Virus record (IMG/VR): IMGVR_UViG_3300027963_000208
Span: 1-32,358 of that record
Direction: 5' to 3' (one strand)
Length of the DNA: 32,358 bases
From: a virus
Position 1 is the first letter of the stretch. The number at the start of each line of letters is the position of its first letter. Under the pieces are notes generated by a model, which was given only the letters and a program-made list of their open reading frames with translations, was not told the origin of the DNA and made no database searches. Of the stretch, positions 1,641 through 32,358 are shown one piece after another. A program made the position numbers and the translations under genes.

Positions 1641-1667
1641 AAGGGGAGCGGCTTTGCCGCTCCCCTT
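1641..1667 (-). terminator. Intrinsic terminator of the late operon (triloop hairpin)
   Basis: Perfect 12-bp arms (AAGGGGAGCGGC and its complement) enclose a three-base loop, TTT on the plus strand and AAA on the minus strand. On the minus strand the stem runs directly into a seven-T tract, the layout of a Rho-independent terminator 17 bases after the last late gene. On the plus strand it is followed by TTAATCC only, so stopping nrdJ transcripts would be weaker, although the convergent genes could share it. The rest of the 1573-1683 gap shows nothing else. Confidence 0.9.
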
Positions 1668-14987: not shown

Positions 14988-16118
14988 TTAAGCACTTAGA
15001 TCGCCGACAAGGGACCAAGTATCAGTAGCAATTTTAACCAAAGTAGCACCAGAATATTGAGCGCGAAACTTAGATCCCGGAGTAGAACGAAAAGTAACGC
15101 CAGTACCACTAACAGTAACTTGTCCAGCACCAGTTTGTAAAAGATCAATACGAGTACCAGTAGTAAAAGCAACATTAGCATTAGTAGGAACAGTTAAAGT
15201 AAACGCTGTAGCCTTATTAAGAACAAGAAGCGCACCAGCATCACCAAGAACAAGTGTATAATCTGTCGTCTTATCAGCACTAACAGTTTGAGCAGTAGCA
15301 AATGTACCAGACGCTCCGGTAGGACCAGTAGAACCAGTAGCGCCATTAGTACCACTAGTACCCGCTGCTCCAGTAGGTCCCGTAGGTCCCGTAGCACCAG
15401 TAGTACCATTAGATCCGGCTGCTCCAGTTGGACCCGTAACAGTACTTGCCGCACCTGTAGGCCCTGTAGGGCCAATAGTTCCATTAGAACCAGCCGGACC
15501 AGTCGGACCAGTTACAGTAGATGCAGCACCCGTCGGGCCAGTAGCGCCTGTAGGCCCAGTAGGACCAGTAACAGTACTCGCCGCTCCAACAGCACCAGTA
15601 GGACCAGTAGGCCCAGTAGACCCAGTAGCACCAACAGCACCCGTTGGACCAGTAACTGTAGAAGCCGCTCCTTGTGCACCCGTTGGACCTGTAGGTCCTG
15701 TAACTGTACTAGCAGCACCAGTTGCACCTGTAGGACCAGTAGGCCCAACACTACCCTGAGGACCAGTAGGCCCTGTAACCGTAGAAGCAGCACCAGTAGG
15801 TCCTGTAGCGCCTGTCGGTCCCGTAGGCCCTGTAACAGTACTAGCCGCTCCCGTAGGACCAGTAACACCCTGCACTCCTTGGCTCCCAGTTGGTCCTGTA
15901 GGGCCTTGTGCTCCAGTAGGACCAGTTACAGTAGAAGCGGCTCCTGTAGGTCCAGTAGGTCCCGTAGGAAGTGAAAAATTAGGAAGACTAATGCCCATAA
16001 GTGTATAACTACTATCAACATATTCGGCTAATTCTTGAATACGAAGAGCAACATTAGATAGACTATCAGACCCTAAAGGATATGGAATGCTATAGTTACT
16101 TGTTGCACTTGTTGCCAT
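14988..16118 (-). CDS. Collagen-like tail fibre (376 aa)
   Basis: The N-terminus ([20 protein letters not shown]) is a short leader typical of phage fibres that attach to the virion. Residues about 52-270 are Gly-X-Y triplets, mostly GPT, GAT and GAA, interrupted eight times by AASTVT, which breaks the triplet phase. The C-terminal ~105 residues are a beta-rich cap ([16 protein letters not shown]). Such proteins form trimeric collagen-like shafts. GGAGG sits upstream of the ATG. Thr-rich triplets next to a phage glycosyltransferase gene raise the possibility of O-glycosylation, which is inference. Repeat DNA may vary in copy number between relatives. Confidence 0.9.
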
Positions 16119-20576: not shown

Positions 20577-20603
20577 TGGGAGAGGGGCAAAGCCCCTCTC
20601 CCA
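20577..20603 (-). terminator. Triloop stem-loop after the capsid gene
   Basis: Perfect 12-bp arms (TGGGAGAGGGGC and its complement) enclose AAA on the plus strand, TTT on the minus strand. It lies nine bases after the capsid stop. On the minus strand it is followed by ATTCTTC rather than a T tract, so it probably acts as a partial terminator or as a 3' stabiliser that raises capsid mRNA over downstream genes. Same loop size and closing pair as the operon terminator at 1641. Confidence 0.75.
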
Positions 20604-29899: not shown

Positions 29900-30334
29900 A
29901 TACTACTTTGTAGTATTATATACAGTTATGGTGGGTATAATCGTAGATTATAGTAAGAGCCTAGTATGCTTATACAACTCTGTTGTATTAGGGGATGCCT
30001 ATAACCTACAGTTATAGGATGATGACTAGTACTACCTTCGGTAGTAAGATATACTTATACCCTTATACTAAGAGTAACTACTCTTAGTATATATATATAT
30101 AGAGTCTTCGACTCTATAAGAATTCTTTATGGTACCAATAATGATAGTAATATCAATTGATATTACTATTGTTTCTACTACCTTTGGTAGTAGTAGCCTT
30201 ATACTACGGAGTAGTATAAGTTTTGTTTATGTTGGTTTATTGGTTCACTACGAAGTAGTGTTTGGTTAGTATCGAAGATACTAGTTTTTGTCTCAACGTA
30301 GTTGAGATACGCATGTTATCCATCTTCGATGGAT
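29900..30334. repeat. Array of 14 different triloop palindromes in the divergent control region
   Basis: Perfect inverted repeats at 29900-29916 (loop TTT), 29936-29952 (GTA), 29972-29988 (TCT), 29998-30018 (CTACA, a C·A mismatch around TAC), 30030-30046 (TTC), 30064-30091 (13-bp arms, AC centre), 30098-30118 (TTC), 30144-30169 (26-base perfect palindrome), 30175-30193 (TTT), 30198-30220 (GGA), 30246-30260 (GAA), 30267-30283 (GAA), 30291-30307 (GTA) and 30318-30334 (TTC). Arms are 6-13 bp; 232 of 435 bases are paired. All eleven true triloops are closed by C-G. Stem sequences differ, though ACTAC next to the loop recurs in five. No reading frame is supportable here. A TA-dinucleotide run lies at 30088-30101. 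Confidence 0.93.
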
Positions 30335-30352
30335 TGGGCTGAGATTTATATA

Positions 30353-30400
30353 CTCTCTAAATAAATATCTGAACGAAGTGAAGATATTTATTATAGAGAG
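30353..30400 (+). promoter_or_regulatory. Long hairpin, copy 1, before the zinc-finger early gene
   Basis: Lower stem CTCTCTA/TAGAGAG (7 bp), one unpaired A on the right side, 11-bp upper stem (AATAAATATCT with its complement), then apex GAACGAAGTGA, which can form tandem G·A pairs, two base pairs and a GAA triloop. It is preceded by TATATA and followed by ATAAAGGGGA, the SD of the gene starting at 30418. Possible roles: mRNA 5' stabiliser, RNase III-type processing site, or protein-binding cruciform. Confidence 0.88.
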
Positions 30401-30417
30401 ATAAAGGGGACGGAAAA

Positions 30418-30834
30418 TTGCTGAATCGCAGTATCAACGAAGTTGAGGGAGCATTCGAAGAATGGTTGGAGTCTTTGTCTCCGGAGGAGACTGCCGAGTT
30501 CTTCGAAATGGTTGCTCGTGATCTTGATAGCATCGAAGATGCTAAGGGTGTTCAGATCGTCGAAGACGATGAATGTGTTGCTCCGAAGGAGGAGATTGTG
30601 GAACCGAAGGTTGCTGTGAAGAAGACGAAGTGCCGCTGCTGTGGCTTTGCCAAGAAGCATTACCGAGTGAATGCCGAAGGCATTTGCAAAGTTTGCTACG
30701 TTGCGTTGGCTACGTCGGATAGTAACTCTGTTACTATCGTTGGTCGGCAGGGCAAGAAGGGTCACAACACTGTAAGTGTTGTAGTCGGTGGGACTCGTGT
30801 GAAAGTCTCTCGTAAGGTACGGCTTGACTCGTAG
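30418..30834 (+). CDS. Early zinc-finger-like protein carrying DNA triloop palindromes (138 aa)
   Basis: TTG start, seven bases after AAGGGGA. Residues 1-60 are acidic and helical (EWLESLSPEETAEFFEMVAR). A Cys cluster at 72, 74, 75, 90 and 93 (KCRCCGFAKK, GICKVC) looks like a treble-clef-like or zinc-ribbon finger. The C-terminus is basic (TRVKVSRKVRLDS), suited to nucleic acid binding. Eleven short palindromes run through the gene, most with the loop as a whole codon. As the first rightward gene after the control region it may be a regulator, but no family is recognised. Confidence 0.8.
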   Translation: MLNRSINEVEGAFEEWLESLSPEETAEFFEMVARDLDSIEDAKGVQIVEDDECVAPKEEIVEPKVAVKKTKCRCCGFAKKHYRVNAEGICKVCYVALATSDSNSVTIVGRQGKKGHNTVSVVVGGTRVKVSRKVRLDS

Positions 30835-31013
30835 AGTAAAGTGTGCTATGATGGTTGAGAATCAACGAAGGAGTGTATATGCGTAAGCGAGAAGTCATCG
30901 TAGATGGTGAGGTCAAAGTGTTTCGTGTCAAGCGTTTGAGTGATAGGCATTCTACGAATGTGGCTGCCAAGTTTGCTAGTCGGGGTCGTGGTTATGCGAA
31001 GAAGCCGAAGGCT
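30434..31013. repeat. Triloop palindromes continuing through the early genes
   Basis: Within the coding region: 30434-30446 (GAA), 30452-30464 (GAA), 30477-30491 (GGA), 30528-30544 (GAA), 30556-30570 (GAA), 30581-30591 (GAA), 30602-30612 (GAA), 30642-30652 (TTT), 30670-30684 (GAA), 30718-30738 (9-bp arms, TCT) and 30764-30782 (8-bp arms, GTA). Further on: 30854-30866 (GAA), 30896-30906 (GTA), 30948-30960 (TAC) and 31003-31013 (GAA). Those with 4-5 bp arms could individually be chance; the 6-9 bp ones are not expected at this density. Confidence 0.8.
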
Positions 31014-31103
31014 CATGTGACTGATATTGTGAGTCCTCTTGGTTTGCGTAGTGATAGTCGGCATGGCGATGATCGTCTTGCTCGTGATAAGGAGTGTGCG
31101 TAA
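30879..31103 (+). CDS. Small basic early protein (74 aa)
   Basis: ATG at 30879 has AAGGAG seven bases upstream; the frame could extend to 30855 but the SD fixes the later start. The protein is rich in Arg, Lys and His (MRKREVIVDGEVKVFRVKRL, then RGRGYAKKPKAH), so nucleic acid binding is plausible. No family recognised. Its stop overlaps the next start (TAATG). Confidence 0.72.
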   Translation: MRKREVIVDGEVKVFRVKRLSDRHSTNVAAKFASRGRGYAKKPKAHVTDIVSPLGLRSDSRHGDDRLARDKECA

Positions 31104-31303
31104 TGGCTAAAATTTGTAGTATTTATGGTGATTATATGGTGATGGATCCTGATTGTGGGTTATATGAAGTGTGGTATGTTAATCCTCACGATGATAATGA
31201 TGAGTTTGTGAGTGAGTGGGAGTCTTTGCATGATGCTGAGTGGCATGCTTTGTGTCATCACAATGCTGACGTTGCTTTGCAACAGGCTCAGGTGCGTAGG
31301 TAG
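31103..31303 (+). CDS. Small acidic early protein (66 aa)
   Basis: ATG at 31103 overlaps the previous stop by one base, with AAGGAG upstream. The sequence is acidic and aromatic (YMVMDPDCGLYEVWYVNPHD, then SEWESLHDAEWHALCHHNAD). Small acidic early proteins of phages often mimic DNA or inhibit host enzymes, but nothing here identifies a target. An upstream GTG in frame (31094) is less likely. Confidence 0.72.
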   Translation: MAKICSIYGDYMVMDPDCGLYEVWYVNPHDDNDEFVSEWESLHDAEWHALCHHNADVALQQAQVRR

Positions 31304-31354
31304 GATCAATTCTAAGGGGTCTACAGAGGCTCCTAAGACGTTTGTGTGTGTCAC

Positions 31355-31380
31355 ATAGGCTACCCCATATGGGTACCTAT
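31355..31380 (+). promoter_or_regulatory. Stem-loop in the 31304-31405 gap
   Basis: ATAGG and TACCC pair with GGGTA and CCTAT around a CATAT loop, with one bulged C at 31360. No T tract follows, so it is not a classical terminator. It precedes the gene at 31406 by 25 bases and may be a processing or stabilising element. Nothing else is seen in the gap. Confidence 0.55.
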
Positions 31381-31405
31381 AATCTCCCCCTGAAAGGGCT
31401 GTAGA

Positions 31406-31612
31406 ATGAGCGAAGATATGACGTATATTATTGAGTGGAATGATGATGTGCTTAGCAATGCTGATTATTGGGCATTGGAATCCTACGAATATGTAGCACA
31501 AGAGGCTGGATTCGTAGAGGATCTCATGGATTATGTGCAAGGCATGGGTTACGATTGGAGTGATGTAGCGCATGTGCAAGAAGTCAATTCGGCAACGGTA
31601 TATACTCTCTAA
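31406..31612 (+). CDS. Small acidic early protein (68 aa)
   Basis: Reads MSEDMTYIIEWNDDVLSNAD and continues acidic and aromatic to VYTL. GAAAGGG lies eight bases before the ATG. Its last codons and TAA stop form the left base of the second long hairpin (31605-31652), so gene end and regulatory stem overlap. No family recognised. It shares style, not clear homology, with the 66-residue protein upstream. Confidence 0.72.
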   Translation: MSEDMTYIIEWNDDVLSNADYWALESYEYVAQEAGFVEDLMDYVQGMGYDWSDVAHVQEVNSATVYTL

Positions 31613-31652
31613 TAATTACTCTGAACGAAGTGAAGAGTAATTATATAGAGAG
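31605..31652 (+). promoter_or_regulatory. Long hairpin, copy 2, before the ArdC-like gene
   Basis: Same 48-base design as the copy at 30353: identical TATATA prefix, CTCTCTA/TAGAGAG base stem, single bulged A at 31645, identical apex GAACGAAGTGA and identical ATAAAGGGGA suffix. The 11-bp upper stem is different (ATAATTACTCT), with six of eleven positions changed and all pairs kept. This covariation between two loci shows the structure, not the sequence, is selected. Confidence 0.9.
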
Positions 31653-31667
31653 ATAAAGGGGAACAAA

Positions 31668-32358
31668 ATGAAGAAGAAGTTTGACATTGCAGAGGTTCAC
31701 GCTGAGATTACCGAAGGGCTGATTGCCTTGATGGAATCTGGTGTGGCACCATGGTCTAAGCCGTGGATTGTTCGTGGTAGGGATGATGCTATGATGCCTC
31801 GTAATGGTATTAGTAATCGTGTATACACAGGGTTTAATAGCATGTACCTGTCGTTTCTCGTTGAGCAGAATGGTTGGAATGATCCACGATTCTACACGAT
31901 GAATAGCCTAGGTGAGGGTATGCAGGTGAAGAAGGGTAGCAAGTCTACGATGGTGATCTATAATAAGGCTACTAAGCGTGACGTTGAGGATGAGGCTACG
32001 GGTGAGGTTGAGACTAAGACTTCGTGGTTTCAGCGCTACTACAGGGTTTTTAATGGCTCGCAGATTGATGGTCTTGATACCTTCGAGTTGCCTGAGGTAG
32101 AGGTTGATGGTTATGATCATGAGCATGATGAGTATGGTGAGGCACAGTTGATTACGGCTGAGTGGTGTGATACGCTGAAGCATGGTTTGATTCATGGTGG
32201 TGATCATGCATTCTACACTCCACAATTGGATGGTATTACAATGCCTGATCTTGACCAGTTTAAGACGCTAGAAGATTACTACCACACCCTGTTCCACGAG
32301 ATTGCACATAGTACGGGGCATGAGTCTCGCACTAACCGGCTTGATCTTGGTACGTTTG
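31668..32358 (+). CDS. ArdC-like anti-restriction protein, 3' end outside window
   Basis: Probably protects incoming DNA from host restriction and may bind single-stranded DNA. The first 230 residues are present and open to the window end. Residues 1-110 match the N-terminal ArdC/ssDNA-binding style (LIALMESGVAPWSKPW, PRNGISNRVYTGFNSMYL, QVKKGSKSTMVIY), followed by an acidic spacer and a metallopeptidase domain with LFHEIAHSTGHESRTNRL, where His210, Glu211 and His214 make HExxH. ATG follows AAGGGGA and sits behind long-hairpin copy 2. Such genes are common early genes of phages and plasmids. Confidence 0.9.
   Translation, partial: MKKKFDIAEVHAEITEGLIALMESGVAPWSKPWIVRGRDDAMMPRNGISNRVYTGFNSMYLSFLVEQNGWNDPRFYTMNSLGEGMQVKKGSKSTMVIYNKATKRDVEDEATGEVETKTSWFQRYYRVFNGSQIDGLDTFELPEVEVDGYDHEHDEYGEAQLITAEWCDTLKHGLIHGGDHAFYTPQLDGITMPDLDQFKTLEDYYHTLFHEIAHSTGHESRTNRLDLGTF

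What the first reader, a model, noticed from the sequence alone, without database searches (positions are those of the whole stretch)
30353..31652. Two 48-base hairpins with covarying stems before two early genes
Copies at 30353-30400 and 31605-31652 share base stem, a bulged A at the same place, apex and flanks, but six of eleven upper-stem positions differ with every pair restored. Two paralogous loci with six compensated changes is strong evidence for selected structure. The apex can form tandem G·A pairs, then A-C/G-T, then a GAA triloop. Each is followed by an identical ATAAAGGGGA SD. This could be a phage mRNA 5' cap-like stabiliser, an RNase cut site or a regulator binding site.
Basis: seen in the sequence. 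Interest (0 to 1): 0.83.

Follow-up and report, generated by a model that had tools for sequence, protein, structure and literature searches.

The report
Start-site hairpins beside phage hairpin array
The two hairpins are real, conserved structures found just upstream of small early genes in many unrelated phages, and here they end a dense row of tiny hairpins that look built to fold as DNA, a control-region layout for which we found no direct description.

Summary
Searches extend it. Thirteen distinct type-A copies have 99.6% of 260 pair cells paired, nine of 20 pairs doubly changed, none changed on one side only. The conserved part is a cap, GA-AC-[GNA]-GT-GA, on freely varying stems. Long-stemmed copies lie on the coding strand 5-50 nt before small genes in diverse phages, including cultured Munch-like jumbo phages. 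Array triloops are closed by C-G 135 times and G-C 4 of 182, with loops known to be hyperstable in DNA, and are strand-neutral. Capped stems hold 8 wobble pairs in 915. My best reading is DNA-level hairpins (extruded or on single strands) marking early expression units, related in logic to N4 promoters and plasmid EGeRS1 regions. An mRNA 5'-leader stem-loop is the close rival. Template switching can make such compensated changes, so covariation alone does not prove function. No experiment separates the readings yet.

The parts
30353..30400 (+). capped hairpin 1 (type A), before the first early gene
31605..31652 (+). capped hairpin 2 (type A), before the ardC-like gene
30371..30381 (+). cap GAACGAAGTGA of hairpin 1 (tandem GA, A-T, C-G, GAA loop)
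31623..31633 (+). cap GAACGAAGTGA of hairpin 2
30349..30352 (+). TATA, invariant in 18 type-A copies; either extends the stem past a bulge or is part of a -10-like TATACT
31601..31604 (+). TATA before hairpin 2
29900..30334 (.). array of 13 perfect hairpins, stems 7-12 pairs, loops 3-5 nt
   Evidence: Markov mean 0.19, maximum 2 of 500
30418..30834 (+). first early gene (TTG start, 138 aa, Cys-rich zinc-finger-like block), itself carrying 8 hairpins with stem 5 or more and loop 3
31668..32358 (+). ardC-like anti-restriction gene (PF08401 and PF18818), cut by the window end

Best explanation
The two hairpins belong to a family of start-associated hairpins of phages: a long, almost perfectly Watson-Crick stem with a conserved cap (GA-AC-loop-GT-GA, loop mostly GNA), lying on the coding strand shortly before the start codon of small, exchangeable early genes. 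Together with the adjoining array they form an early control region that most likely folds as DNA. The hairpins would extrude under negative supercoiling or form on exposed single strands, and the sheared-GA/GNA cap would make the coding-strand arm hyperstable while its template-strand partner (TNC loop) is weak and left open, setting where early transcription or polymerase loading begins. Shown: structure, cap, position, orientation, array, loop types, module-boundary behaviour. Inferred: folding as DNA in the cell, the supercoiling or single-strand step, and the role in early transcription.
For: (1) Structure under constraint: 260 cells in 13 distinct copies, 99.6% paired, 9 of 20 pairs with double changes, covariation 0.42 against 0.09 shuffled and at most 0.11 when slid. 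(2) Loops of the array fit DNA rules: of 182 deduplicated triloops 135 are closed by C-G and 4 by G-C, and 59 are c[GNA]g; isolated hairpins of the same loci give 67, 38 and 14 of 200; c[GNNA]g or c[CNNG]g tetraloops 10 of 80 against 6 of 177; c[TTCG]g 0 of 80 against 8 of 177. GNA and GNNA mini-hairpins are hyperstable DNA (PMC4686876, passages); the title naming d(cGNNAg) and d(cCNNGg) was seen in a reference list. Streptomyces telomere palindromes, a single-stranded DNA structure, carry the same loops, GNA or CTTG (PMC7205883, passages). (3) Non-coding array loops are strand-neutral, 36 purine-type to 37 pyrimidine-type, 3 others, and six comparisons of hairpins with identical upper stems show the loop inverted. 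(4) 8 wobble pairs in 915 in 48 long capped hairpins, against 33 of 321 in 30 terminator-like hairpins of the same loci. (5) Cap loops also vary to GTTA, TTTA, TAAA and AAA while GA-AC..GT-GA stays. (6) In cultured Munch-like phages a TTGACA-17-TACACT promoter overlaps the hairpin so that the -10 lies in its 5' arm (5 of 2000 shuffles as good), and likewise in L081 (2 of 2000). (7) Protein-only search for the first early gene: 25 of 25 loci have 5 or more perfect hairpins upstream.
Against: The capped hairpins themselves keep one orientation (an ATG-started frame within 100 nt downstream in 40 of 50, against 8 of 50 antisense) and sit beside the SD, as an mRNA element would. Promoter scores around all 51 copies are barely above shuffles (mean 5.8 against 5.0; 6 above the 95% line), and type A shows no conserved -35. 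No T7-type RNA polymerase was found, though no control genome rang, and the 1969-aa protein matches none. N4 hairpins carry GNA on the template strand, these on the coding strand. Close relatives G002, G006 and G009 lack capped hairpin and zinc-finger gene, and the loci L007, L028 and L039 of the same records pass no array threshold, so the region is dispensable. Few wobbles and inverted loops are also what template switching alone leaves.
Confidence: 0.42

Rival explanations
1. mRNA 5'-leader stem-loop. The hairpin is transcribed and, as RNA just before the SD, protects the message from 5' decay, is an RNase III site that separates early messages, or is bound by a phage or host protein that controls translation. 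The array would be a structured leader.
For: Fixed coding-strand orientation (40 of 50 against 8 of 50); place next to the SD; strong RNA folds; one copy per small gene in several genomes. In type B copies (L064, L070, L114, L154) the stem base covers the SD, as in translational control.
Against: 8 of 915 wobble pairs; DNA-type loops and strand-neutral array; TTTA, TAAA and AAA cap loops are not RNA-stable loops as far as I recall; SD cover would hinder the first early gene; in Munch-like phages and L081 the predicted start lies inside the hairpin.
Confidence: 0.33
2. By-product of replication. Template switching at a hairpin-prone, single-stranded-rich region (perhaps an origin) perfects palindromes and inverts loops; the array has little or no function, and only the capped copies are used.
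For: Instant double changes and loop inversions are the published signature; DNA-stable loops favour snap-back; 21 of 52 comparisons with identical upper stems have other loops and 6 inverted ones; dispensable in close relatives.
Against: The cap sequence, orientation and position are kept; the array recurs before the same gene in 25 of 25 loci and continues into coding sequence while 61 of 72 blocks of the rest of the window have none.
Confidence: 0.12
3. Recombination or gene-exchange site. Hairpins act as boundaries where small early genes are swapped, through a single-strand nuclease or simply as shared sequence, with expression effects secondary.
For: Of 46 pairs of type-A copies that share a flank, 34 share only one side; the same cap occurs in a REP-like dispersed repeat of bacterial genomes.
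Against: No nuclease or transposase partner was identified; stems vary too freely for homology; one-sided homology also follows if the hairpin is just the retained control element.
Confidence: 0.08
4. Replication element: origin, primase or SSB-excluding hairpins.
For: Array lies between the late and early blocks; telomere-like loops; strand-neutral.
Against: Absent in near relatives with a similar replication module (G006, G009); the capped hairpin recurs at several genes per genome.
Confidence: 0.05

Closest known systems
EGeRS1 regions of pLS20-type conjugative plasmids (PMC8708921, passages)
   Same: Regions of 400-600 bp with many inverted repeats directly upstream of the RBS of early (establishment) operons, ardC among them; no constitutive promoter found; RNA or ssDNA level undecided.
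   Different: By the paper the pLS20 regions are conserved repeats of each other. In six pLS20 upstream stretches I found 0-6 perfect hairpins (stem 6 or more) per 620 nt, and no GAACGNAGTGA or GAGCGNAGCGA cap on either strand of the 16-kb stretch.
N4 virion RNA polymerase promoter hairpins (PMC4496689, passages)
   Same: Small DNA hairpins with a sheared-GA three-base loop before early genes; variable stem bases tolerated if pairing is kept; extruded by supercoiling.
   Different: GNA is on the template strand in N4 and on the coding strand here; long stems here; no vRNAP found; a whole array here.
Streptomyces telomere palindromes (PMC7205883, PMC4513846, passages)
   Same: Tightly packed palindromes capped by GNA or CTTG loops that fold as single-stranded DNA; compensatory stem changes noted.
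   Different: Replicon ends with terminal protein; here internal, before early genes, strand-neutral.
SAS/ESAS of cluster K mycobacteriophages (PMC3203893, passages)
   Same: Repeats tied to the start of non-structural genes; the ESAS is an inverted repeat just upstream of the SD-like SAS.
   Different: ESAS arms have a consensus and, by their authors, little support for pairing in mRNA; here arms vary and pairing is kept.
PeSL cassettes of T4-type phages (only cited in PMC4503421; original not held)
   Same: Stem-loops beside early genes linked to shuffling of genes.
   Different: PeSL is a composite promoter-terminator motif (a cited title); here the hairpin abuts the SD.
REP-like repeat GTCATTCTGAACGNAGTGAAGAATCT of bacterial genomes
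   Same: Same cap.
   Different: Short stem, exactly 5 bp in 128 of 140 GAAC..GTGA copies; dispersed; fixed sequence rather than covarying stems.

Membership tests
N4-type vRNAP promoter hairpin | GNA-type loop on the template strand of the early gene | tested here: not met
   Cap GAACGNAGTGA is on the coding strand; N4 polarity.
N4-type vRNAP promoter hairpin | giant virion RNA polymerase in the genome | tested here: inconclusive
   PF00940 in 0 of 34 records, but no control genome rang; the 1969-aa protein has no RNAP match.
EGeRS1 | multiple inverted repeats immediately upstream of the RBS of early operons | tested here: met
   Array plus capped hairpin before the first early gene; the ardC-like gene has the capped hairpin only.
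EGeRS1 | sequence conserved among the copies over 400-600 bp | tested here: not met
   The window copies share the 48-nt hairpin and short flanks only; no record covers 80% of the hairpin-2 query in phages or plasmids.
Streptomyces-type telomere array | palindromes with GNA or CTTG loops | tested here: met
   arrays also hold other loops (ATA, AAA, AGA)
Streptomyces-type telomere array | lies at a replicon end with 3' overhang | tested here: not met
   Internal, between late and early genes; the true genome ends are unknown.
SAS/ESAS | 13-bp GGGATAGGAGCCC and consensus 17-bp arms | tested here: not met
   SD stretch is ATAAAGGGGA; upper arms vary freely.
Rfam RNA families | match at gathering score | tested here: not met
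   0 matches in the window; sub-threshold matches E 0.22-5.
RNase III processing site | cleavage by RNase III in the early mRNA | not testable with these tools
   no RNA data

The most novel reading that the evidence does not exclude
A new kind of phage early-control region made of DNA structure rather than sequence: a dense, strand-neutral field of hyperstable DNA mini-hairpins running from the non-coding leader into the first gene, followed at each early expression unit by a coding-strand hairpin with a dedicated GA-AC-loop-GT-GA cap that acts as a structural start signal read on extruded or single-stranded DNA. It would have spread among unrelated phages and serve as the docking point for swapping early genes.
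Probability: 0.33. Interest if true: 0.86.

Novelty: new variant of a known kind. Interest (0 to 1): 0.72.

Why it matters
Regulatory DNA hairpins are known from very few systems (N4 promoters, Frpo-type single-strand promoters). Here a widespread set of phages, including cultured Salmonella and Klebsiella jumbo phages for the capped hairpin, carries start-associated hairpins with DNA-type caps, and environmental relatives carry them beside dense hairpin arrays. If DNA-level action holds, it gives many natural test cases for how DNA shape controls early genes, and may bear on the unexplained inverted-repeat leaders of plasmid establishment genes.

Tried and rejected
Rfam: nothing at gathering score, only chance-level matches below it. 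N4-type promoter: rejected as membership because the GNA loop is on the coding strand. T7-type RNA polymerase: none found, but the search had no positive control. Sigma-70 promoter as a general explanation: not enriched over all copies; kept only for Munch-like phages and L081. The wobble comparison for array hairpins found with wobbles allowed was uninformative (10.5% in arrays, 23.5% elsewhere), because that search lets chance hairpins in. Vienna's DNA parameters hold no special loops, so an energy test of loop choice was not possible. A scan for type A with any cap loop gave 30 stretches; of the 13 new ones one (L368, the L008 phage, loop TTTA) is a hairpin and the other 12 have no paired stem by eye. 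The sequence string was looked for in print: 74 papers, the 30 listed look like chance primer matches. A literature search for hairpin arrays in phages gave 8 papers, none on point by title; other literature searches are.

One search likewise stopped at its limit; all 119 loci were used. Many loci are near copies of each other; counts were deduplicated by sequence, not by descent, so p-values are only descriptive. Loci L060, L062, L075, L079, L085, L087 and L090 were left out as duplicates of contigs held under other numbers. Records were mostly chosen because a cap, a pattern or the terminase had brought them in. In one search only 7 of 56 terminase relatives show an array and 3 of 56 a long capped hairpin, but many of these loci are too short to reach the region. 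In one search, G048 (its contig starts in the array), G011, G019 and G032 lack the zinc-finger gene although they carry an array or capped hairpins. Of the 8 loci marked new, L392, L398 and L404 share an exact 200-nt probe with earlier loci, so five are fresh. The cap pattern misses some caps.

Full report
What was claimed and checked. The two 48-nt hairpins exist exactly as described: same base stem, same bulged A, same apex, same SD, and twelve differing bases that are six restored pairs. Both fold far better than shuffles (z -7.4 and -7.0). A covariance model finds no third copy in the window.

The family. A pattern with free upper stems gave 28 viral stretches. Twenty-one type-A copies, thirteen distinct, were aligned. 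With the named structure 99.6% of 260 cells pair, nine of twenty pairs carry double changes, none changes on one side only, and the covariation score is 0.42 against 0.09 in shuffles and at most 0.11 in slid versions. The pattern fixed the cap and most of the base stem, so the pairs that tell are the upper-stem ones, which it left free. One copy (L154) changes the base stem as well, T-A to C-G. The model then hit 37 of 43 viral records, most of them chosen by earlier cap, pattern or terminase searches; six terminase relatives had none.

What is conserved is the cap. A scan for any GA-NN-loop-NN-GA cap on a stem of seven or more pairs found 70 hairpins: with AC/GT, loops GAA 31, GTA 20, GGA 2, GCA 1, AAA 2, TTTA 2, GTTA 2, TAAA 1; the other nine have other inner pairs. 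Most loci had been brought in by searches that fixed GNA, so the loop shares are biased towards GNA. The long-stemmed examples range from the window's kin to phages with no visible relation (L069, L077, L080, L112, L128, L149). Of 50 long copies 40 have an ATG-started frame of 50 or more codons within 100 nt downstream on the cap strand and 8 on the other; the window's first copy counts as a miss there because its gene starts with TTG. Spacing from hairpin to the first such start is 5-50 nt in all but one (91, L061, where another start lies at 15).

The array. From 29900 to 30334 there are 13 perfect hairpins with stems of 7-12 pairs and loops of 3-5 nt; Markov shuffles of that stretch average 0.19 and never exceed 2 in 500 (coordinates). 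The first early gene carries eight more with stems of five or more pairs and loops of three (shuffles 0.26, maximum 3), while 61 of 72 same-sized blocks of the rest of the window have none. Relatives keep the hairpins but change stems in pairs and change loops, and six of 52 comparisons with identical upper stems show the loop inverted (some comparisons may not be true homologues). Similar clusters occur in many loci that carry the cap, in quite different phages, sometimes inside genes (L147, L102, L112, L080, L069).

DNA or RNA. Array triloops are closed by C-G 135 times and by G-C 4 times of 182; isolated hairpins of the same loci give 67 and 38 of 200. c[GNA]g is 59 of 182 against 14 of 200. 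Among tetraloops c[GNNA]g or c[CNNG]g is 10 of 80 against 6 of 177, and the RNA-type c[TTCG]g is 0 of 80 against 8 of 177. Both the window's kin and the unrelated group show the C-G bias (75 of 91 and 59 of 90). GNA and GNNA loops make hyperstable DNA mini-hairpins (PMC4686876, passages), and Streptomyces telomere palindromes are capped by GNA or CTTG (PMC7205883, passages). Non-coding array loops are equally often purine-type and pyrimidine-type on the early-gene strand, 36 to 37, with 3 others; coding ones 16 to 9, with 6 others. Capped stems hold 8 wobble pairs of 915; terminator-like hairpins of the same loci hold 33 of 321, though that set may include chance hairpins. I recall, without a call, that RNA triloops are not known to prefer C-G over G-C closure in this way. 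These points favour folding as DNA. Against this stand the fixed coding-strand orientation and the neighbourhood of the SD for the capped hairpins, which suit an mRNA element.

Mutation versus selection. Template switching in replication can make compensated changes in one step and invert loops (PMC8794818, passages). It can explain the absence of wobble intermediates and the inverted loops whatever the level of function. It does not explain why the capped hairpins keep their orientation, their GA-AC..GT-GA and their place, nor why arrays recur upstream of the same gene.

Gene context. The gene after the array encodes a small protein with a variable N-terminal part and an invariant C..CGF.KK...G.CK.C block. 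It is found in 17 of 42 records searched. A search with the protein alone gave 25 loci, all with five or more perfect hairpins in up to 900 bp upstream, five of them fresh by an exact-probe check. Near relatives with terminases 82-85% identical to the window's (G002, G006, G009) lack the protein and the capped hairpin, and their terminase loci pass no array threshold; for G006 and G009 much of the rest of the genome is shared by mutual BLAST (G002 was not compared). The array is therefore a dispensable, exchangeable module. Type-A copies also mark junctions: of 46 pairs sharing a flank, 34 share one side only.

Cultured phages. A blastn search brought up Salmonella phages 7t3, SE_PL, Munch and PHA46 and Klebsiella phage fENko-Kae01. 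In Munch the pattern GAACGNAGTGA occurs three times, all on the same strand: one at the end of a gene without a stem, one before an ADP-ribosylglycohydrolase gene, one before gene 496, whose annotated RBS starts 31 nt after the matched stretch. At the last, TTGACA, 17 bases, TACACT places the -10 in the hairpin's 5' arm; only 5 of 2000 shuffles score as well, and L081 is similar with 2 of 2000. These were the best of 51 tested; over all 51 the excess is small (6 above the 95% line). No hairpin array accompanies the Munch copy before gene 496.

Mechanism. I commit to DNA-level hairpins that mark early expression units. The cap would make the coding-strand hairpin persist, while the template-strand hairpin with its weaker loop opens, giving an entry or start point; this mirrors the published N4 logic with opposite polarity. 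Shown: the structures, their cap, place, orientation and company. Inferred: everything about what happens in the cell. The RNA-leader reading is close behind, and the two can be told apart by 5'-end mapping and the reporter set given in the next steps.

Known kinds. Closest in layout are the EGeRS1 regions upstream of ardC and other establishment operons of pLS20 (PMC8708921, passages), whose mechanism is unknown; in six pLS20 upstream stretches I found 0-6 perfect hairpins and no such cap. In mechanism it may resemble N4 promoter hairpins or Frpo single-strand promoters (PMC11541004, passages), in loop choice Streptomyces telomeres, in position ESAS, in gene shuffling PeSL. It fails a tested defining feature of N4, EGeRS1, telomeres and ESAS, so I file it as a new variant of a known kind, regulatory nucleic-acid hairpins. 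The literature searches made showed no description of it in their listings, within an open-access library.

Noticed in passing
window 29900-30334 and 30418-30834: Dense array of perfect short hairpins reaching into the first early gene; became central to the report.
   Followed up: yes
window 30418-30834: Small early protein with invariant zinc-finger-like Cys block, no Pfam or PHROG match, co-occurring with the array; structure prediction did not finish.
   Followed up: partly
L408 about 2086-2480 and L428 about 595-1040 (Salmonella phage Munch): A duplicated non-coding stretch (73% over 295 nt plus 85% over 66 nt) precedes both Munch capped hairpins; no Rfam match.
   Followed up: partly
119 genome-contig loci L205-L323: Repeat GTCATTCTGAACGNAGTGAAGAATCT with the same cap, dispersed in genomes of several phyla (Bacteroidota, Ignavibacteria, Chloroflexi, Clostridia and others); looks REP-like.
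   Followed up: partly
window 1641-1667 and 20577-20603: Two perfect 12-bp hairpins with TTT or AAA loops and GC-rich stems, probably terminators.
   Followed up: no
window 30824-30852: TTGACT-17-TATGAT with TG before the -10 (10 of 12) at the end of the first early gene, just before ORF 30855.
   Followed up: no
window 14988-16118: Collagen-like GPTGPTG repeat protein among the late genes.
   Followed up: no
L077 1871 and L119 3225: Long perfect hairpins with tandem-GA caps but other inner pairs (GT[CTT]AC, AT[TCT]AT).
   Followed up: no
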